From assembly GCA_016875195.1 (NCBI GenBank), contig VGRY01000015.1, positions 1-64,000 on the forward strand: 64,000 bases of DNA. Direction: 5' to 3'. Source of the stretch: Deltaproteobacteria bacterium (lineage in GTDB: Bacteria; Desulfobacterota; BSN033; UBA1163). Below, one piece after another: positions 1-32,454 of this stretch. Every line of letters begins with the position of its first letter. Within the stretch, counting starts at the first letter, position 1. The notes under the pieces were generated by a model. That model worked only from the letters and a program-made list of their open reading frames with translations. It ran no database searches and was not told the origin of the DNA. Both the position numbers and the translations under genes were made by a program.

Positions 1-662
1 GCAAATTATCATTATTGTTAGTCACTATTTTCGCCAATTCAAAGCAACTCCCCTCGAAATTAAAGGCTTTTTCAACACACAAAGCCCAAATTTTGCTAAA
101 ACCAACCAGCAAACTGCGGAAGTCGGGCTAGTGGTTAACAGTTAATCGCCCATCAAATCGGTAAGATAGGGAAGCTTAAAGAAAACTCTTTTTATTCAAA
201 TAGATCGATAAGAAAACGGATATACTGCTATATACCGTCTTTTGCCTGAATTTACCGATTTTTTGCCATCAAACTACTGCAATAGTACTGCAAGCCAAGG
301 CTAAATCACATTTCTATTGGAAGTCTCTGGAATGAAAATGAAAAAGTTCGGGTAGTCCTCATATGTTTTTGAGGGTTAACACGTCTTCCATATGGTAACC
401 TTTTCGAAGGTACATACAGTGGTAAGATATCTGCAGTTTAGGCAGAACTCCCCGTAGCGCTGTCAAGCAATTTGCAGAGAGAATTGAAAAACACGCGTGA
501 TCGTTGTCCCTATCTTTTGAATCTTTTCGAGATTTTATCTCCTGTTGAGATTCTTAGGACGCTCATTTTGAGGCTGAAAATGCAATCCTAAACCCTTTTG
601 GGGAGCTAACTTCCTGCACTTTCTTTATCATTTCAAGCTATCGCCTTGGTCCGACCAAATGC
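1..662. other. Gene-poor left edge
   Basis: No convincing intact gene is visible. The stretch is AT-richer than the rest of the window. On the minus strand around 375-600 there are short scraps in several frames that resemble the end of an Obg/DRG-type GTPase (for example a frame reading NLEKIQK near 520), so it probably holds decayed 3' sequence of the pseudogene at 663-1268. A weak bulged hairpin (CGGATATA and TATATACCG, about 218-238) is followed by a short T-rich run. Confidence 0.4.
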
Positions 663-5423: not shown

Positions 5424-5753
5424 CGCATATATAATAAGCAATATTCATGCCAAATAATTTTATTCCAAAAATCATCTCATCTTTCACAAAGCCGTTCTTT
5501 TAGGTCATCAAACCCAACTTCCAATGGGAGTCTTATCTCTGCATTACTACTCTTATCAGCATTCTATGAAGAGATGTGTGTGTGGAAAATAATGCTCTCT
5601 TATTTCAAAGACAAGGAAATTATTGCCGGACCGATCAGGATTAGATTTTTTAATACTGGAGTTTTACAATGTTAACTTATTAAAAATAAAAGAGAAATGA
5701 GAGTAACAAAAAATTGAAATTTTTGGCACGTCCATTGCTCTATGTAAAGACAA
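5424..5753. other. Divergent promoter region between PilZ gene and fliK
   Basis: AT-rich spacer with no gene. The only signal I can support is the sigma-54 promoter at 5724-5738. No obvious activator-binding palindrome was found. Confidence 0.5.
5724..5738 (+). promoter_or_regulatory. Sigma-54 promoter for fliK-flgD-flgE
   Basis: TGGCACGTCCATTGC matches the -24/-12 consensus. GG (5725-5726) and GC (5737-5738) have the exact canonical spacing. The predicted start point is about 5750, only four bases before the first fliK ATG. Confidence 0.85.
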
Positions 5754-7397
5754 ATGATGGAACTGCCACGTTTAACCAACCTGACGTCTACCGGAATTGA
5801 AGGAAATCCTTCTATCTTTTCTCCTGATATTTCTTCAGGAGAGTTCAATTCCATCCTCCTCAATCAAATGATCAAAGTGGAAGAAGGGGATTGTAATGAC
5901 GATGGATGCGGAGGGGCGTTCCCTACCCCTTTATTAGAAGAATCGGCCTTGCCCAACTTGGATGAGGAAGAATCTCTTCCATCCGATACTTCTGCTCCAC
6001 TTTTTGTCTTTGCTTTCATCGAACCAGCGAATGTTTCCAACCTTTTGGAAGGACAGGAGTTTCCTTTCCCTATCCGTTCGGCATCAAACATTCCATTATT
6101 GATAGATTGCGAAACCGGAAACCCCGATCCGAGAGGGGGAGACCTACGGGGAGCCCCTCCTCCTCCGGAACAAGTTAAGTATGGAAATGACCCTTTCATT
6201 CCCATCCCCCTTAATGGTCTGGAAAGAATTGTTACGGATCCTTCCGGTTCTCTTTCGTCTGATCAGCTCAACCTTCCCTTCAATGCCCCCTTTCTTTCTC
6301 GGAGCATTGAAGGAAAAATGATCGCTCCCCCCGGGTTTCAATCCGGGAGTGAACAAATATCACCAGACTTATCTCTTTTGGAAAAGGATATTTCTGGGAC
6401 CGTTCAGAGGCTTGTCGAACCTGGGGACGGCTTCCAAAAGGAAACTTTCTCTTTATTTCAATCGACAGGGAGTAAGGCAGGAAATTCTCTAATGCCCAGT
6501 CGAATAGAGAATGATGGCCAGGGAGTTCCGACGGCTTCCAGCCCCCCCCCCGTCTCTTTAGAAAAAGAGATCTCAGATCTTACATTGAAATTTGAATCGA
6601 TTGACAGATCCCAAGTCAGCGGATCACGCTCCGCCCCTGAAAACGGCCCCCATAGATGGGCAACCGGTCAGATGGAGGGTGAAGGCAAGAGAGTCTTGAC
6701 TTCGATAGATCCATCCGCGGTTTCTTTAGAAGAAAGCCAAACAGCCTCAACATTGAAATTTGAATCGATTGACAGACTTCAAGTCAGCGGGTCAAGCTCC
6801 GCCCATGAAAAAGATCCCGGTGGGTGGATTTCATTGAAACATCATTCCGCACTTTCCGAATCTTATTCTGTTCAGAATGAAGCTGTCGGGGAGTTAAAAA
6901 CGGAACTCTTTTTACCTGGGGAGACTTCAAAGGCGCAAAACAGTTCTCCTCCCCGAGTGGACTCATTTGAAATTTATCGTCAGGTTGGCCAGAAAATGGT
7001 CTGGTCTGTTCGAAATGGGGAAGAGAAGGTAAACCTCTTGCTGGATCCTCCACAGCTGGGTAACCTCCGCATGGAAATTACAAAGGAGAGGGAGATAGTA
7101 AAAGCCACTCTCTGGGCGGAAAGCCCGGTGGCCAAAGAGCTGTTGGAGACCCACCGGTCGGAACTCAGCAGAATTCTTGAGACCGGTGGTTTCAAGCTGG
7201 AGAGGTTCAATGTCTTCGTCCAGCATGGGATGAAAGATTTTTATGATGGAGGGAGGAACTCCATGTTCAACGGCGAAAAGTCATCGGACCGATTTGTAGA
7301 AAATCATGACTCTCCCGTAGAATATTCGCCGGAAAACTCAACCCCTCCTGCGATCCTAAACCTCCACGGGAATAGATCCATCGATCTTTTCGTTTAG
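5754..7397 (+). CDS. fliK: Flagellar hook-length control protein FliK
   Basis: FliK is an exported ruler that ends hook growth and switches the export gate from hook to filament substrates. This 547-residue protein has the usual long, low-complexity, Pro/Ser-rich N-terminal half and a C-terminal hook domain at about 405-500 (LLDPPQLGNLRMEI, ETGGFKLERFNV). It is the first gene of an operon with flgD and flgE, behind a sigma-54 promoter. Two oddities: a run of ten C (6542-6551) inside the frame, and a tandem 56-residue duplication (both copies contain TLKFESIDR then QVSGS, 168 bases apart at 6582 and 6750). The first ATG lies only about four bases from the predicted transcript start and has no ribosome-binding site. 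Confidence 0.92.
   Translation: MMELPRLTNLTSTGIEGNPSIFSPDISSGEFNSILLNQMIKVEEGDCNDDGCGGAFPTPLLEESALPNLDEEESLPSDTSAPLFVFAFIEPANVSNLLEGQEFPFPIRSASNIPLLIDCETGNPDPRGGDLRGAPPPPEQVKYGNDPFIPIPLNGLERIVTDPSGSLSSDQLNLPFNAPFLSRSIEGKMIAPPGFQSGSEQISPDLSLLEKDISGTVQRLVEPGDGFQKETFSLFQSTGSKAGNSLMPSRIENDGQGVPTASSPPPVSLEKEISDLTLKFESIDRSQVSGSRSAPENGPHRWATGQMEGEGKRVLTSIDPSAVSLEESQTASTLKFESIDRLQVSGSSSAHEKDPGGWISLKHHSALSESYSVQNEAVGELKTELFLPGETSKAQNSSPPRVDSFEIYRQVGQKMVWSVRNGEEKVNLLLDPPQLGNLRMEITKEREIVKATLWAESPVAKELLETHRSELSRILETGGFKLERFNVFVQHGMKDFYDGGRNSMFNGEKSSDRFVENHDSPVEYSPENSTPPAILNLHGNRSIDLFV
6542..6551 (+). repeat. C10 homopolymer inside fliK
   Basis: Ten consecutive C residues encode part of Ser-Pro-Pro-Pro. 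Gain or loss of one base would frameshift fliK before its essential C-terminal domain. Tracts of this kind mutate by slipped-strand mispairing in other bacteria. Confidence 0.85.
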
Positions 7398-9752: not shown

Positions 9753-9767
9753 TGGCACATTCGTTGC
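9753..9767 (+). promoter_or_regulatory. Sigma-54 promoter for the fliL operon
   Basis: TGGCACATTCGTTGC has GG (9754-9755) and GC (9766-9767) at canonical spacing. The predicted start is near 9779, 28 bases before fliL. Confidence 0.85.
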
Positions 9768-9806
9768 TATTCTTCTCTCTGAAGTTTAATTCAAGGAAAA
9801 GACAGC

Positions 9807-13200: not shown

Positions 13201-13995
13201 ATGGTCAATGACTTTTCCCGGTGGACCGCAGATCTGTTTCAGACCTGGCTCCTCGTTCTGATGAGGGTTGCGCCGATCGTCTTTATGATGCCCCTGTTTT
13301 ATTCGCGGAACATCCCTGCCAGGGTGAAAGCCGGATTGACACTGATCATCAGCCTGGCGCTTCTGCCTACGGTCAAGGTCGAGATGGGACGATTCCCGTC
13401 CGAGCCATTGAGCTTCGGCTTCTTCGCGCTCTCCGAATTGATGATCGGATTTCTATTGGGTTTCTCAGTCCGTCTGATCTTTGCCGGCCTCCAGATTGCA
13501 GGCGAACTGGCAGGATTCCAGATGGGGTTCGGTATGGCAAAGGTCATGGACCCCCAGTCCGGCAGCGAATCGACCGTGGTCACGGGATTCTATTACATGA
13601 TTGGACTCCTTCTCTTTTTGACGGTAGACGGACATCACTGGTTTTTTAAAGCCCTCGCGCAGAGTTTTCAACTCCTTGCACCCGGGGAGTTCGAACCACG
13701 GGAGGGACTGGCACAGCTCTTCATTCGTCTATCGGGAAAGATGTTTGTGCTGGCGATTAAGATCGTGGCACCTATTCTGGCCATTATGATGCTGGTACAG
13801 ATTGCCATGGGGATCATTGCGAGGATGATTCCCCAGGTGAATGTCTTGATGACCAGTTTCCCGGTGACGATCAGTCTGGGGCTTATCTTTTTGGGGCTTT
13901 CGGTGGAGCTTTTCTGGCCCGTTCTCAAAAACCTGTTGGATGAATCGGGCAGGGGATTGGCGACCACCCTGTTGCCCCTGATGAAGGGACCATAA
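13201..13995 (+). CDS. fliR: Export gate protein FliR
   Basis: FliR provides the single sixth subunit of the FliP5-FliR1 export core. The 264-residue protein has about six membrane helices and the conserved sequence GLQIAGELAGFQMGFGMAKVMDPQ at about 97-120. AGGAAACG precedes the ATG. Its stop codon overlaps the flhB start (TAATG), which suggests translational coupling. Confidence 0.96.
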   Translation: MVNDFSRWTADLFQTWLLVLMRVAPIVFMMPLFYSRNIPARVKAGLTLIISLALLPTVKVEMGRFPSEPLSFGFFALSELMIGFLLGFSVRLIFAGLQIAGELAGFQMGFGMAKVMDPQSGSESTVVTGFYYMIGLLLFLTVDGHHWFFKALAQSFQLLAPGEFEPREGLAQLFIRLSGKMFVLAIKIVAPILAIMMLVQIAMGIIARMIPQVNVLMTSFPVTISLGLIFLGLSVELFWPVLKNLLDESGRGLATTLLPLMKGP

Positions 13996-15062
13996 TGGCA
14001 GAAGAGTCTTTCTCAGAGCGAACCGAGCAAGCCACGCCGAAAAGGCGTGAAGATGCGAGAAGAAAAGGCCAGGTGGCGAAAAGCCGGGAGATCCCTTCGA
14101 TCTTTATCCTGTTAGGAGGGGCTTCAATTCTGTTTCTTTTCGGCTCTTACCTCTATCGGCACTTTTCCGAGCTTATGGTTCGATTCTTTAAACAGACGGG
14201 AGTTAGGTCTTTTTCTCTCGAGATGGTTCAGACCCTCAATGTAGAGCTGATTCGCTCCCTCCTTCTGATTATTTCTCCGATTCTCATCACGACGTTGGTC
14301 CTATCGGTCCTCGGCCATTACGTTCAAAGCCGGACGCTTTTGGCGACAGAAGCCTTAAAATGGGACTGGTCCAAACTCAATTTCATTAAGGGGTTGAGAA
14401 AACTCTTATCCATTCAATCCTTGGCGGAATTGTTGAAATCGATCCTTAAATTGCTGATCATCGGCGGAGTTGCGTATGTCACGATTAAGAAGGAACTGCC
14501 CGGCCTTTTGCTTCTGACAGATCAGGAACCGGAGGCCATTCTGAACTATGTCCGCTCCATCTCCTGGGGCCTCCTGCTTCGAATCGGCATGGTCATGGTT
14601 GTTCTTGCGGGCCTGGATTATCTTTTCCAACGCTGGACTTATGAAAAGAATCTCCGGATGACCAAACAGGAGGTGAAGGAGGAGTTCAAACAGACCGAGG
14701 GAGATCCGATTGCCAAATCGAGAATACGAAGCCTCCAACGTCAGTTGGCCAGGAGGCGAATGATGGCAGAGGTTCCAAAAGCGGATGTGATCATCACCAA
14801 CCCCACCCATCTGGCCGTGGCCATCTTCTATCAGGTGAAGAAGATGGAAGCGCCCAAGGTATCGGCCAAGGGCTCCGGTTATATCGCGGAGAAGATCGTC
14901 GAGGTGGCAAGGAAGCATCACATTCCCGTGATCGAAAATAAACCCTTAGCCCGGATCCTCTACAAGACCGTCGAGATCGGTCAGATGATTCCGGCCAGCT
15001 TCTACCGCGCCGTGGCCGATATTCTGGCCTATGTCTACAGGATGAAGAACAGGACGTTATAA
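13995..15062 (+). CDS. flhB: Export switch protein FlhB
   Basis: FlhB sits at the export gate and switches substrate class after self-cleavage. The 355-residue protein has the family start (ERTEQATPKRREDARRKGQV), four membrane helices between about 33 and 212, and a cytoplasmic domain with the autocleavage site NPTH at 269-272. It is the canonical full-length gene; a separate C-terminal-domain-only relative lies at 22679. FliK, which triggers the switch, is encoded at 5754. Confidence 0.97.
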   Translation: MAEESFSERTEQATPKRREDARRKGQVAKSREIPSIFILLGGASILFLFGSYLYRHFSELMVRFFKQTGVRSFSLEMVQTLNVELIRSLLLIISPILITTLVLSVLGHYVQSRTLLATEALKWDWSKLNFIKGLRKLLSIQSLAELLKSILKLLIIGGVAYVTIKKELPGLLLLTDQEPEAILNYVRSISWGLLLRIGMVMVVLAGLDYLFQRWTYEKNLRMTKQEVKEEFKQTEGDPIAKSRIRSLQRQLARRRMMAEVPKADVIITNPTHLAVAIFYQVKKMEAPKVSAKGSGYIAEKIVEVARKHHIPVIENKPLARILYKTVEIGQMIPASFYRAVADILAYVYRMKNRTL

Positions 15063-20825: not shown

Positions 20826-20861
20826 CCTCTCTTGACTGTTGAAAAAATGAGGAGGAGAAAA

Positions 20862-21356
20862 ATGGAAACAGGGATGGTTGGGCTCTTAAACTTAACAGGT
20901 ATAGAGATGGGGTTGATCCTTTTGGCAGGGTGCATCCTTCTTTCACTCATCATCATGATCGCCTATTTCAGAAAGGTGATGGCATTGCTCAAGGGGCCGA
21001 GACCGGTTTATAAGGATTCTGATCACATCAAAGAATGGGTTCAGGAATCGGAAGCTATCTACGAAAAGCTTTTGAAGGCCCTGGAAGAAAGGAAGGAGAT
21101 TGCGAACAGGTTGATCACACAGCTCGACACAAGAATCGAGACACTCCGTTCCATGTCGATCGGGATAGATCGGGAAACGGTTCCGATTGCCGAGGAGATT
21201 CCCGGTCATCAACGGGAAGGGGAGGTCATGATGATGGCCGAAGAAGGCAGGGATTTCTCAGAGATTTCCAAACAGACAGGGCTTTCCGTGGGAGAAATCC
21301 AGCTCATCATCAATTTAAAGAGATGCCAGGGATCTTCCCCATTCAAAATTGCATAG
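20862..21356 (+). CDS. Membrane-anchored coiled-coil/HTH protein (DUF2802-like)
   Basis: GGAGGAG selects ATG 20862. The 164-residue protein has one N-terminal membrane helix (about 13-37), a coiled-coil stretch (about 55-100) and a C-terminal helix-turn-helix-like segment (DFSEISKQTGLSVGEIQLIINL). This arrangement matches the DUF2802/DUF6115 type of small proteins often found in flagellar operons. Their function is not established. It lies after cheY and before the second FliK-like gene. Confidence 0.72.
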   Translation: METGMVGLLNLTGIEMGLILLAGCILLSLIIMIAYFRKVMALLKGPRPVYKDSDHIKEWVQESEAIYEKLLKALEERKEIANRLITQLDTRIETLRSMSIGIDRETVPIAEEIPGHQREGEVMMMAEEGRDFSEISKQTGLSVGEIQLIINLKRCQGSSPFKIA

Positions 21357-21511: not shown

Positions 21512-22645
21512 TTGAAAAAGATCCAATTCCCTTCTCTTTCCTCCCTTGATCTGATTCGTCTCGATTCTCCCCCAGGAAAGGACCTTCCCTCTTTCCGTAT
21601 AGGCCAGGTCCTCCAGGGAAAGGTGATGGAGGTGGTCGATGATCGAAATGCGGTGATCCGCATGGAAGGACGTGATCTCTCCGTTGAGAGCCGAATCCCT
21701 TTGTGCAAGGGAATGGAAGGATTTTTCGAGGTCAAAGGGGTCGATCCACAAATTATTCTCAAACTTCTTCAACCGGAAGAGATGAGCCTTCTGGATGCTG
21801 AGAGATGGCTCAAGGCCTTTCTGATGGCGGATCTTTCGAAAGAGGATCTGTCGGAAAGATTATCACTTCTATGGAAAACAGGGACAGAAGAAATGGCTCC
21901 TGCGGTTCGGGAGACCATGGATCGTTTGCTGAGCCTGTGGAGTTCTTTTTCTCCTTCAAGGCCTTTTGCATTCGATCCGGCACAGGTCCAGGAGATGGTC
22001 AGACGCTCCGGTCTCTTTTTTGAGCAGCAGATGGGAAGGTTGATCGAGGATGGCAGTCAAAGCCGGTTTGAAGAAGCGCTGGGAAGGGATGTAAAGGGAT
22101 TGCTGGCTCAATTGAAGGTTCAGCTCGAAACCTCCTCGATGGCCCGGACCTCAGGCCCCGACCCCTCCAGACATGAAGAACTCCTGGAGGGTGTAAATCA
22201 TCTTCTTCACAAGATCGAAGGCTACCAGCTGTTACATTCTTCCTCTCCTGCCGGGACTCAGGAAAAGATATTTCTTCTTCTTCCCTTCTGGATTCATGAA
22301 CGACTTCAGCTCGTTGACCTCTATCTCTCTCTTTCCCAATCCGGATCGGGTCGTTCGGAGCCCGAAGGGATGTCTATGCTCTTTTTGCTCCATTTACCAG
22401 AGTGGGGAAGGATGAGCATCGAGGTTAGGATGAGCGGAAAAAAACTATATGGTCGATTTCTTTTCTCCTCTGATGAGGTGACTTCCTTCTTCGGCGGGGC
22501 GATCGATCAACTTCGATCGAGACTGCTTCATCTTGGATTTCACTCCGAGATGCAGGTCTCCACACAGGCTCCGGAGAAGATCGTAGAAAGTTTTCTGAAC
22601 GAGATGAAGGGAGATGACAGATCGTTATTGAATCTCGTGGTCTGA
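21512..22645 (+). CDS. Second FliK-like protein
   Basis: This 377-residue protein appears to start at TTG 21512 with AAGAGA upstream. Its N-terminal 65 residues hold a beta domain (RIGQVLQGKVMEVVDDRNAVIRM). The middle is helical and its last 110 residues resemble the FliK C-terminal domain (LHLPEWGRMSIEVRM, then SRLLHLGFHSEMQV). FliK-type domains interact with FlhB. The next gene is an FlhB-C-terminal homologue, so the pair looks like a spare ruler/switch module. Function is inferred; it could also be an export accessory factor. Confidence 0.7.
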   Translation: MKKIQFPSLSSLDLIRLDSPPGKDLPSFRIGQVLQGKVMEVVDDRNAVIRMEGRDLSVESRIPLCKGMEGFFEVKGVDPQIILKLLQPEEMSLLDAERWLKAFLMADLSKEDLSERLSLLWKTGTEEMAPAVRETMDRLLSLWSSFSPSRPFAFDPAQVQEMVRRSGLFFEQQMGRLIEDGSQSRFEEALGRDVKGLLAQLKVQLETSSMARTSGPDPSRHEELLEGVNHLLHKIEGYQLLHSSSPAGTQEKIFLLLPFWIHERLQLVDLYLSLSQSGSGRSEPEGMSMLFLLHLPEWGRMSIEVRMSGKKLYGRFLFSSDEVTSFFGGAIDQLRSRLLHLGFHSEMQVSTQAPEKIVESFLNEMKGDDRSLLNLVV

Positions 22646-22678
22646 TCATTCCGCCCTATTGAGCAAAGGAGTGGTCCT

Positions 22679-22972
22679 ATGGGACAACCGAAACCGGTTA
22701 AAAAGGCGGTTGCACTCAAGTATACTCCAAGTCGCGATCAGGCCCCGCGGGTGGCGGCCAAGGGTCAGGGTTTGCTTGCCCAGAAAATCATCGAACTGGC
22801 CAGGCATCATGGCATTCCTATACAGGAAGATCCGGCTCTGGTCCAGGTACTGGCACAACTCGATTTCCATCAAGAAATCCCTCCGGAGGCGTATCTGGTC
22901 GTGGCCGAGATTCTGGCCTTTGTCTATTCGATGAATCAGAGGTGGACTTCGCTCCAGCCACGAAAGGGGTAG
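22679..22972 (+). CDS. FlhB C-terminal-domain protein (FlhX-like)
   Basis: This 97-residue protein matches only the cytoplasmic domain of FlhB: VAAKGQGLLAQKIIELARHHGIPIQ and the C-terminal PPEAYLVVAEILAFVYSMN align with KGSGYIAEKIVEVARKHHIPV and ADILAYVYRMK of FlhB at 13995. It has no membrane helices, and the NPTH cleavage motif is replaced by a YTPSRDQAP sequence. Homologues in other bacteria can replace the cleaved FlhB C-terminus. AAAGGAG lies upstream of the ATG. It is coupled to the second FliK-like gene. Confidence 0.85.
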   Translation: MGQPKPVKKAVALKYTPSRDQAPRVAAKGQGLLAQKIIELARHHGIPIQEDPALVQVLAQLDFHQEIPPEAYLVVAEILAFVYSMNQRWTSLQPRKG

Positions 22973-23082
22973 GAAAAAAATTCCCTATGGTCCTTAATTT
23001 TAGGCATCTCTTTGCCTGCCAAAACCATAAAAACATTGGTTGAAAAATGGCAATCTATTGGAAATAGATGGGATTTGACGAT

Positions 23083-23097
23083 TGGCACATGCTTTGC
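23083..23097 (+). promoter_or_regulatory. Sigma-54 promoter for flgF-flgG operon
   Basis: TGGCACATGCTTTGC has GG (23084-23085) and GC (23096-23097) at canonical spacing. The predicted start is near 23109, 18 bases before flgF. Confidence 0.85.
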
Positions 23098-23126
23098 ATT
23101 TTTTGAAATCAACGGGGAGGGGATTG

Positions 23127-23837
23127 ATGATGAGACCATCGATAAATTTGTTCACTTCTGGAGCGATTCGTCAGGAAAGGCGATTTCAGCTGATTTCTCA
23201 GAACTTAAGCAATGTACAAACGGTGGGTTACAAAAAGGATGTTCCTGTCTTTTCAACCCTTTTGTTTGATGCCATCGAGTCCTCCGGGGGTGAAAAGCAC
23301 GATCCCTCCGTCGTTTCCTTTCAGCAGGGGTCGATTGAAAAGACCGGGAACAACCTTGATCTGGCCATTGAGGGAGAAGGGTTTTTCAAGGTGATGACGC
23401 CCAACGGGATTCGATATACTCGGGCAGGCCATTTCAAGTGCGACCGCGAGCAGAGATTGACCCAGGCAGACGGGTTTCCTGTCCTCGGGCAGAACGGAGA
23501 AATCAGGGTGAGCGGGAAAGAGATGGTCGTGGATAAGGATGGCACCATCAAACTGAATGGCGAAGAGGTGGACCGAATCGCCCTGGTCACCTTTGCCGAT
23601 CCGGTCCGGTTGAGAAAAGATGGAAACAATCTTTTCGCTCCGGAGGCTCCTGACGGGGAACAGAAGGTTGAATCGGCCTCTGTTCTTCAGGGTTACCTCG
23701 AACAGTCGAATGTCAATCCGATCGAAGAGATGGTGAGACTGATCGATTCCCTCAGGACCTATGAGTCCTGCTTGAAGGTGATTCAATCCCGGGATGAGCT
23801 GAATGGAAAAGTGGTCAATGACATGGGCAGGGTTTAG
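23127..23837 (+). CDS. flgF: Flagellar proximal rod protein FlgF
   Basis: FlgF builds part of the proximal rod. I place the start at ATG 23127, behind GGGGAGGGG; the frame extends to 23082 but that lies upstream of the predicted transcript start. The 236-residue protein shows the rod motif near the N-terminus (QERRFQLISQNLSNVQTVGYKK) and near the C-terminus (LEQSNVNPIEEMVRLID). It lies directly before flgG, as usual. Confidence 0.94.
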   Translation: MMRPSINLFTSGAIRQERRFQLISQNLSNVQTVGYKKDVPVFSTLLFDAIESSGGEKHDPSVVSFQQGSIEKTGNNLDLAIEGEGFFKVMTPNGIRYTRAGHFKCDREQRLTQADGFPVLGQNGEIRVSGKEMVVDKDGTIKLNGEEVDRIALVTFADPVRLRKDGNNLFAPEAPDGEQKVESASVLQGYLEQSNVNPIEEMVRLIDSLRTYESCLKVIQSRDELNGKVVNDMGRV

Positions 23838-32431: not shown

Positions 32432-32446
32432 TGGCACATGGCTTGC
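32432..32446 (+). promoter_or_regulatory. Sigma-54 promoter before the glycan island
   Basis: TGGCACATGGCTTGC has GG (32433-32434) and GC (32445-32446) at canonical spacing. The predicted start, about 32458, falls inside the hexanucleotide repeat. Confidence 0.82.
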
Positions 32447-32454
32447 TATAGCTC

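What the first reader, a model, noticed from the sequence alone, without database searches (positions are those of the whole stretch)
21512..22972. Second FliK-like gene paired with an FlhB C-terminal-only gene
A ruler-like protein and an FlhB-switch-domain protein without the NPTH cleavage site lie together, far from the main fliK and flhB. They may form a backup or modified specificity switch. A partner lacking autocleavage implies a different timing mechanism.
Basis: partly seen in the sequence, partly recalled or inferred. Interest (0 to 1): 0.5.

Follow-up and report, generated by a model that had tools for sequence, protein, structure and literature searches.

The report
Second flagellar export-switch gene pair
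Next to its normal flagellum genes this bacterium carries a pair of relatives of the two proteins that tell the flagellum export machine when to stop building the hook; in the genomes sampled the two mostly occur together, but what the pair does is untested.

Summary
ORF 21512-22645 (377 aa) ends in a FliK-type switch domain; ORF 22679-22972 (97 aa) is the FlhB cytoplasmic domain alone, without the NPTH cut site. Ordinary fliK (5754) and flhB (13995) lie in the same flagellar cluster.

Stand-alone FlhB C-domains (FlhX) are known, and one paper mentions an 'flhX-fliK' locus. Not found in print by my searches: (1) FlhX separates cleanly from FlhB C-domains in a tree; (2) in 64 of 80 FlhX loci the ORF directly upstream is this FliK type; (3) in a phylum sample FliK2 was found in 52 of 58 FlhX genomes (55 with three weak cases) and in 3 of 28 with FlhB only; (4) FliK2 does not look like a ruler: it has a folded N-terminal small beta-barrel, a helical middle and the switch domain with a conserved C-terminal pentapeptide.

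Most likely the pair is an accessory export-specificity module: FlhX a replaceable, already 'cut' FlhB C-domain that keeps the substrate pocket, FliK2 its switch partner. Binding and timing are inferred. 'Backup or modified switch' is partly supported; 'ruler', and 'no autocleavage means different timing', are not.

The parts
21512..22645 (+). fliK2: FliK-type switch protein with N-terminal small beta-barrel, 377 aa, TTG start
   Evidence: ORF; PF02120 31.4 bits; profile of its C-domain family matches Salmonella FliK C domain 2rrl, E 4.2e-7; AlphaFold model
21575..21787 (+). stretch of fliK2 (residues 22-92) that holds the N-terminal small beta-barrel domain (profile match residues about 28-86)
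   Evidence: iterated profile; weak S1/OB-type matches in PDB; pLDDT 81-92 for residues 31-80; no Pfam family for this member
22373..22573 (+). Flg_hook (T3S4 switch) domain of FliK2, residues 288-354
   Evidence: fold matches PscP switch domain 5cuk Z 6.2 and FliK C domain 2rrl Z 4.8, both middling
22628..22642 (+). C-terminal pentapeptide of FliK2 (LNLVV)
   Evidence: pattern met by 59 of 64 FliK2 against 24 of 1905 other ORF ends; the pattern was read off the same family
22679..22972 (+). flhX: stand-alone FlhB cytoplasmic C-domain, 97 aa, no NPTH site
20832..21356 (+). upstream gene of the DUF6115 type (possible SwrB relative), frequent neighbour of fliK2
   Evidence: 26.8 bits to PF19610 (cut-off 27); upstream in 26 of 80 FlhX loci; PF19610 also rings in Bacillus subtilis
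13995..15062 (+). flhB, full length with NPTH (context)
   Evidence: TIGR00328 422 bits; NPTH
5754..7397 (+). fliK, ordinary hook-length control gene, 547 aa (context)
   Evidence: PF02120 59.6 bits
23083..23098 (+). exact sigma-54 type -24/-12 site between flhX and flgF (context)
   Evidence: four exact matches in the window (5724, 9753, 23083, 32432); with one mismatch allowed 5 found, 1.3 expected, 1 of 100 shuffles reached 5

Best explanation
The pair is an accessory module of the flagellar export-specificity switch. FlhX is a free-standing, already 'cut' copy of the FlhB C-domain: it keeps the pocket that in FlhB docks early (rod and hook) subunits but has no membrane part and no self-cleavage site. 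FliK2 is its partner: a FliK-type switch domain with a conserved C-terminal pentapeptide, carried on a folded N-terminal barrel and a helical middle, so probably not a tape measure. Proposed mechanism: FlhX can occupy the place of the FlhB C-domain at the export gate (before it is made, or after FliK has removed it), and FliK2 binds FlhX through its switch domain to load, hold or eject it, so that the substrate class can be set without a new round of FlhB synthesis and cleavage. Shown here: family identity, separation from FlhB in a tree, joint occurrence, retained pocket residues, absent cut site, FliK2 domain make-up. Inferred: that the two bind, that FlhX reaches the gate, and the timing.
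For: Adjacency: FliK2 in the ORF directly upstream in 64 of 80 FlhX loci (gaps -12 to 232 nt; 63 at E 1e-3 or better, L093 at 7.6e-3); no other ORF of those loci matches the profile at E 0.01; 3 more loci (L056, L061, L062) have the FliK2 N-domain in the overlapping upstream ORF. Joint occurrence among 86 of 148 sampled phylum genomes with an FlhB-type hit: two or more Flg_hook proteins in 44 of 58 FlhX genomes against 2 of 28 without; with FliK2 profiles and a check of each N-domain-only case 52 of 58 against 3 of 28, p 6e-13. Tree: 81 FlhX and 32 FlhB C-domains lie on two sides of one branch, 99/99, 98% of 200 bootstrap trees. Residues matching the FlhB pocket A286, P287, A341, L344 are kept in 94, 100, 100 and 96% of 81 FlhX (register agrees with the fold alignment of model 143..203 to 270..331 of 3b0z_B; pocket from passages of PMC9307174 and PMC13344023). 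FliK2 N-barrel and ordered body. C-terminal pentapeptide; in Salmonella the last five residues of FliK are proposed to engage the cut FlhB domain, whose ejection flips the switch (PMC13344023: abstract, section 14 and passages).
Against: No interface was predicted with confidence: in both fused-chain models the FliK2 end and linker are at pLDDT 55 or lower and the FlhX part is middling. The joint occurrence is not independent of descent: on an FlhB tree only 4 well-supported independent pairs exist; FliK2 goes the same way in 2.6 to 2.7 of them and never the opposite way, which cannot reach significance. 28 of 86 genomes lack FlhX, 25 of them both. By the C-domain profile FlhX stands without an adjacent FliK2 in 16 of 80 loci (12 if N-domain and weak cases are counted). 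Three FliK2 calls (G049, G110, G136) rest on a weak N-domain with hardly any C-domain, one (G159) proved doubtful and was dropped, and the N-domain profile also hit S1-like proteins (G050, G056) at E 7e-4 to 3e-3. FlhX differs from FlhB in the stretch around FlhB's PLAR, so its binding may differ.
Confidence: 0.45

Rival explanations
1. FlhX alone is a plain spare part for the FlhB C-domain, used when FlhB's own C-domain is damaged or missing; FliK2 is a neighbour with an unrelated or redundant FliK role.
For: Published title on H. pylori HP1575 as a 'spare part' (citation). FlhX is found without an adjacent FliK2 in some lineages, e.g. L038, L043, L107.
Against: Of 16 sampled FlhX genomes where FliK2 is not adjacent, 10 hold one elsewhere (13 with weak cases); the genomes of L038 and L107 do too (L170, L171). 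FlhX has its own signature residues and branch, unlike an interchangeable spare.
Confidence: 0.2
2. The module acts early, on gate activation or the rod-to-hook stage, together with the upstream DUF6115 (SwrB-like) protein, not on the hook-to-filament switch.
For: DUF6115 gene upstream of fliK2 in 26 of 80 loci, and still beside fliK2 where flhX is elsewhere (L173, L174). SwrB activates FliP-dependent early secretion (PMC4526659 passages). The first of 13 query genes downstream of flhX is flgF in 29 of 80 loci; a paper notes that actinobacterial classes without FlgFG also lack FlhX (PMC10746217 passage).
Against: In Paenibacillus and Syntrophomonas loci nearly none of the 13 flagellar query genes lies within the 6 kb held on either side of the pair. 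That the DUF6115 gene is SwrB is inferred. flgF has its own sigma-54 type site.
Confidence: 0.2
3. FliK2-FlhX is a cytosolic adaptor: FlhX's pocket and FliK2's barrel hold or sort early subunits before they reach the gate, with no role in switching.
For: Pocket residues retained, FlhX is only the cytoplasmic domain, FliK2 is folded and weakly S1/OB-like at its N-terminus.
Against: FliK2 keeps the switch domain and pentapeptide, which a simple adaptor would not need.
Confidence: 0.1
4. The pair belongs to a second flagellar or injectisome system.
For: Two FliK-type and two FlhB-type genes in one genome.
Against: Only one full-length FlhB was found in this genome (assembly 87% complete), and the pair sits inside a flagellar cluster. 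Genomes G142 and G182 show what two full-length FlhB look like.
Confidence: 0.03

Closest known systems
FlhX / FlhB2 (HP1575 of Helicobacter pylori) and TIGR00789 flhB_rel
   Same: Stand-alone FlhB C-domain in a genome that also has full-length FlhB.
   Different: Window member scores below the TIGR00789 cut-off (106.5 against 117.35 bits), as did every match in the 148 phylum genomes. Here it comes with a FliK-type partner. The H. pylori sequence was not compared.
'flhX-fliK' locus of Nitratiruptor (PMC9321776, passages seen)
   Same: The same two kinds of gene named as one locus outside the main flagellar cluster.
   Different: Named in passing; the passages seen say nothing of domain make-up, partner function or joint occurrence. 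Sequence not compared.
FliK, flagellar hook-length control protein (PF02120)
   Same: Same C-terminal switch domain and a similar C-terminal pentapeptide (IDLFV in this window's fliK, LNLVV in fliK2).
   Different: FliK2 has an N-terminal barrel and an ordered body; the ordinary FliK proteins looked at have a more polar, less hydrophobic part before the C-domain.
FlhB/SctU C-domain (cut form, 3b1s, 3b0z)
   Same: FlhX matches the separate cut chain (E 1.3e-21; Z 10.0) and keeps the subunit pocket residues.
   Different: Separate gene, separate branch of the tree, no membrane domain, no cut site, other residues at the FlhB positions of M284 and of the PLAR stretch (residue names recalled).

Membership tests
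FlhB HrpN YscU SpaS family (PF01312) | match above Pfam's gathering score | tested here: met
   79.6 bits against 24.4, C-terminal part of the profile only
FlhB proper (TIGR00328 equivalog) | whole-length match above the equivalog cut-off, with membrane domain and NPTH site | tested here: not met
   80 of 349.25 bits, covers profile 264-346 only; no NPTH in the translation
TIGR00789 flhB_rel | score above the curated cut-off of 117.35 bits | tested here: not met
   106.5 bits; a near relative, not filed as a member
FlhX-type stand-alone FlhB C-domains | groups apart from FlhB C-domains in a tree | tested here: met
   one branch, 99/99, 81 against 32 rows (24 of the 32 from genomes in the FlhX set); 79 columns only, bootstrap not settled, unrooted
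FlhX-type stand-alone FlhB C-domains | can replace the FlhB C-domain in export | not testable with these tools
   needs genetics
FliK (PF02120 Flg_hook) | switch domain above gathering score | tested here: met
   31.4 against 29.8 bits
FliK ruler | long, polar, extended N-terminal ruler part | tested here: not met
   model shows barrel and helices at block pLDDT 64-93 for residues 31-240; composition differs from 19 ordinary FliK chosen by hand
FliK ruler | secreted during hook growth | not testable with these tools
   needs an export assay
DUF6115 (PF19610) / SwrB, for the upstream gene | score above gathering cut-off | tested here: inconclusive
   26.8 against 27 bits, 27.2 with neighbours in the frame; SwrB itself not compared

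The most novel reading that the evidence does not exclude
FliK2-FlhX is an exchangeable switch cartridge: a non-secreted FliK-like protein whose C-terminal pentapeptide docks on the edge strand of FlhX, where FlhB's own cut strand would lie, and delivers a pre-cut FlhB C-domain to the export gate, resetting or holding early export after FliK has ejected the original domain. It would make the 'irreversible' flagellar export switch reversible in the several phyla that carry the pair.
Probability: 0.15. Interest if true: 0.75.

Novelty: new variant of a known kind. Interest (0 to 1): 0.45.

Why it matters
How the flagellum switches export class is a long-standing question; a 2026 paper argues that FliK ejects the cut FlhB domain (PMC13344023; abstract, section 14 and passages seen). 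Several phyla carry a second, free-standing copy of that domain, mostly with a FliK-like partner. Knowing what the pair does would test the ejection model and show whether the switch can be reset. As far as I recall the pair is absent from E. coli and Salmonella, where most of the work was done.

Tried and rejected
Natural fusion of FliK2 and FlhX: long open frames at some FlhX hits (L005, L019, L023, L051, L075) read as another frame running through, not as FliK2 fused to FlhX; no fusion was seen. Second flagellar system: only one full-length FlhB in the genome. Interface prediction from fused chains: no confident contact; a one-residue bridge at the FliK2 end and a low-confidence strand at residues 123-127 were noticed, and several uncut FlhB/SctU chains align from model residue 377 on, but that did not recur with the second model and the short linker forces the parts together. 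Alignments discarded: A4, A9, because the aligner laid FliK2 ends onto FlhX, and A8 for a smaller error of that kind; some alignment rows repeat one contig under two locus names (L033/L006, L036/L011, L059/L017). Descent-aware test of joint occurrence: too few supported pairs (still counted G159, one search does not). N-domain-only cases were fetched and checked: G159 dropped; G050 (second hit) and G056 look like S1 proteins; G049, G110 and G136 kept as weak only. Alphaproteobacterial FlhX (L090, L099) has no detected FliK2 beside it and may be another subgroup. The helical middle matched only helical bundles, Z up to 7.2, uninformative. Literature: Wand et al. 2006 is not held; ten searches were made, and 'not found in print' rests on these alone. 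Recalled, from no call: the names ylqG/ylqH for the Bacillus pair, FlhB residue names M284 and PLAR, and the Salmonella FlhB order used first to place the pocket (later agreed).

Full report
What is there. The window holds a large flagellar cluster: fliK at 5754, flgD, flgE, fliL, fliM, fliP, fliR, flhB (13995), flhA, flhF, a MinD/ParA-type gene in the place of flhG, fliA, a response regulator, a DUF6115-like gene (20832), fliK2 (21512), flhX (22679), flgF, flgG, flgA. FliK2 has the Flg_hook domain at residues 288-354, just above Pfam's cut-off; FlhX covers profile positions 258-335 of the FlhB family and nothing else. The best solved match of the FlhX profile is the separate cut chain of Aquifex FlhB, 3b1s_B, E 1.3e-21. 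Exact sigma-54 type sites lie before fliK (5724), before fliL (9753), between flhX and flgF (23083) and at 32432, so fliK2-flhX look like the tail of the operon that holds flhB and flhA, while the main fliK starts another; this is inference from sites only.

FlhX elsewhere. None of the 80 has NPxH. Of 34 full-length FlhB segments two repeats were dropped; all 32 left have N-P at the cut site, 22 of them NPTH (rows were trimmed at an N-P motif). In a tree the 81 FlhX and 32 FlhB C-domains lie on two sides of one branch (99/99; 98% of 200 bootstrap trees). 24 of the 32 FlhB rows come from genomes in the FlhX set. The tree has 79 columns only, many open forks, an unsettled bootstrap and two long FlhB rows. 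FlhX keeps the residues that match the FlhB pocket A286/P287/A341/L344 in 94, 100, 100 and 96% but has D where FlhB has M before the AP pair (80%), D at position 51 (99%), and D/A, V, E in place of P, A, R of the FlhB PLAR stretch.

The partner. With a profile grown from the C-terminal part of FliK2, 64 of 80 FlhX loci have a match in the ORF ending directly upstream (gaps -12 to 232 nt; 63 at E 1e-3 or better); at E 0.01 no other ORF of the 80 loci matches, and the only further hit is this window's own fliK. Of the 16 others, L048 is at a contig end; L056, L061 and L062 have an overlapping upstream ORF with the FliK2 N-domain; L088 is cut at a contig end with a weak Flg_hook (E 0.0028); L105 has an ABC transporter gene upstream; ten show no FliK2 there (L038, L043, L052, L057, L066, L075, L079, L090, L099, L107). 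For three of the ten (L038, L079, L107) the genome holds a FliK2 elsewhere (L170, L164, L171); G079 and G070 (L099, L090) showed none with the N-domain among the loci fetched; the other five genomes were not searched.

Joint occurrence. In a sample of 148 genomes of the window's phylum, 86 have a TIGR00789 hit; by open-frame length and, for G008, G036, G042 and G048, by sequence, 58 have FlhX (56 of them with full-length FlhB found too) and 28 have FlhB only. Two or more Flg_hook proteins: 44 of 58 against 2 of 28. A FliK2 C-domain profile, run on 44 of the 86 genomes, added G091, G141 and G170, giving 47. The FliK2 N-domain profile was run on 52 of the 58 and on all 28: it matched 47 of 52 and 4 of 28 at E 0.01. 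I fetched the N-domain-only cases: G023, G029, G088, G122 and G181 hold up, making 52 of 58; G049, G110 and G136 (269-aa ORFs, N-domain in place, hardly any C-domain, no pentapeptide) are weak, making 55; G159 is doubtful and was dropped; G010 (FlhX at a contig end) and G147 have none. Among the 28, G087, G129 and G186 have it (G186 only in a 105-aa ORF, G087 without a recognisable C-domain); the G056 hit looks like an S1 protein. 52 of 58 against 3 of 28 gives p 6e-13. FliK2 lies beside FlhX in 42 of the 52 (40, plus G023 and G088). In G038, G100 and G181 (and the weak G049, G110, G136) it lies about 6-8 kb downstream of flhB on the same strand, as in this window. The sample is not independent of descent: on an FlhB tree of 84 genomes FlhX changes 11 times and FliK2 12, but only 4 independent pairs lie on supported branches; FliK2 follows in 2.6 of them and opposes in none. 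That agrees with coupling and does not prove it.

FliK2 is not an ordinary FliK. An iterated profile of its N-terminal domain matched 57 of the 64 adjacent FliK2 (four of the seven misses, L083, L089, L096 and L112, are cut at a contig end) and unlinked or diverged ones. Other hits in the loci were few: one short ORF that looks like IF-1 by eye (L061), and, in the whole-genome search, S1-like proteins at E 7e-4 to 3e-3. Among the loci fetched for ordinary FliK (L143-L161, L175-L190) only L189 was hit, and that one is itself beside an FlhX; some of these loci cut long FliK short, so the 28 FlhX-free genomes, of which 26 have at least one FliK and 3 or 4 an N-domain hit, are the better control. 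The domain weakly resembles S1/OB barrels: the best PDB profile sums are Rrp5 and S1 (1e-7 to 1e-4, no single stretch passing on its own), IF-1 at 0.05; model residues 20-95 match S1, NusA and Tex barrels at Z about 5.5-6, which is middling. AlphaFold gives pLDDT 81-92 for residues 31-80, 64-93 for the helical middle up to 240, and 61-91 for the C-domain. The part before the C-domain is more hydrophobic and less polar in 55 FliK2 than in 19 ordinary FliK picked by hand. 59 of 64 FliK2 fit a C-terminal pentapeptide pattern, against 24 of 1905 other ORF ends; of 44 FliK-type ORFs in the later loci, mostly ordinary FliK, 27 fit, so the ending is a FliK trait and not special to FliK2 (pattern chosen after seeing the family).

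Mechanism. Recent Salmonella work holds that FliK ejects the cut FlhB domain, that loss of this domain blocks early secretion, and proposes that the last five FliK residues engage it (PMC13344023: abstract, section 14, passages). Against that background a free FlhB C-domain that keeps the subunit pocket and mostly occurs with a FliK-type switch protein is best read as an accessory switch module. Whether it is a backup, a reset or an early-stage regulator cannot be settled from sequence. The neighbouring DUF6115 gene (upstream in 26 of 80 loci; beside FliK2 in L173 and L174, where FlhX is not) points to a possible SwrB-like third member; PF19610 rings in Bacillus subtilis, but I did not see which gene.

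What is known. FlhX is listed among flagellar export proteins in two surveys, one of which names an 'flhX-fliK' locus (PMC10746217, PMC9321776; passages). The H. pylori 'spare part' paper was seen only as a citation. So the pair as such is not new; the make-up of its FliK member, its difference from the ruler and the joint occurrence were not found in the ten searches made.

Noticed in passing
window 5724-5739, 9753-9768, 23083-23098, 32432-32447: Four exact sigma-54 type sites (TGGCAC-N5-TTGCW) on the + strand, before fliK, fliL, flgF and a MerR-type gene; suggests sigma-54 control of the cluster.
   Followed up: partly
window 20832-21356: Gene near DUF6115/DUF2802 with a hydrophobic N-terminal stretch, after fliA and a response regulator and before fliK2; may be a SwrB counterpart outside Bacillota.
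   Followed up: partly
L120, L124, L125, L031, L126: FlhB proteins whose cut site reads NPTR, NPTK or NPVR instead of NPTH (5 of 32 FlhB rows; 5 more have another third residue before H).
   Followed up: no
L090 and L099: Alphaproteobacterial FlhX genes with flhB and flgF-like genes on the other strand and no FliK2 beside them; possibly a separate FlhX subgroup.
   Followed up: no
G046:C12, G134:C1, G179:C24: Adjacent FliK2 ORFs of about 740-754 aa with two or three N-domain matches each, i.e. repeated barrels.
   Followed up: no
window 23082-23130: The listed flgF ORF starts at TTG 23082, which overlaps the sigma-54 type site; the in-frame ATG codons at 23127 and 23130 after GGGGAGGGG are likelier starts.
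   Followed up: no
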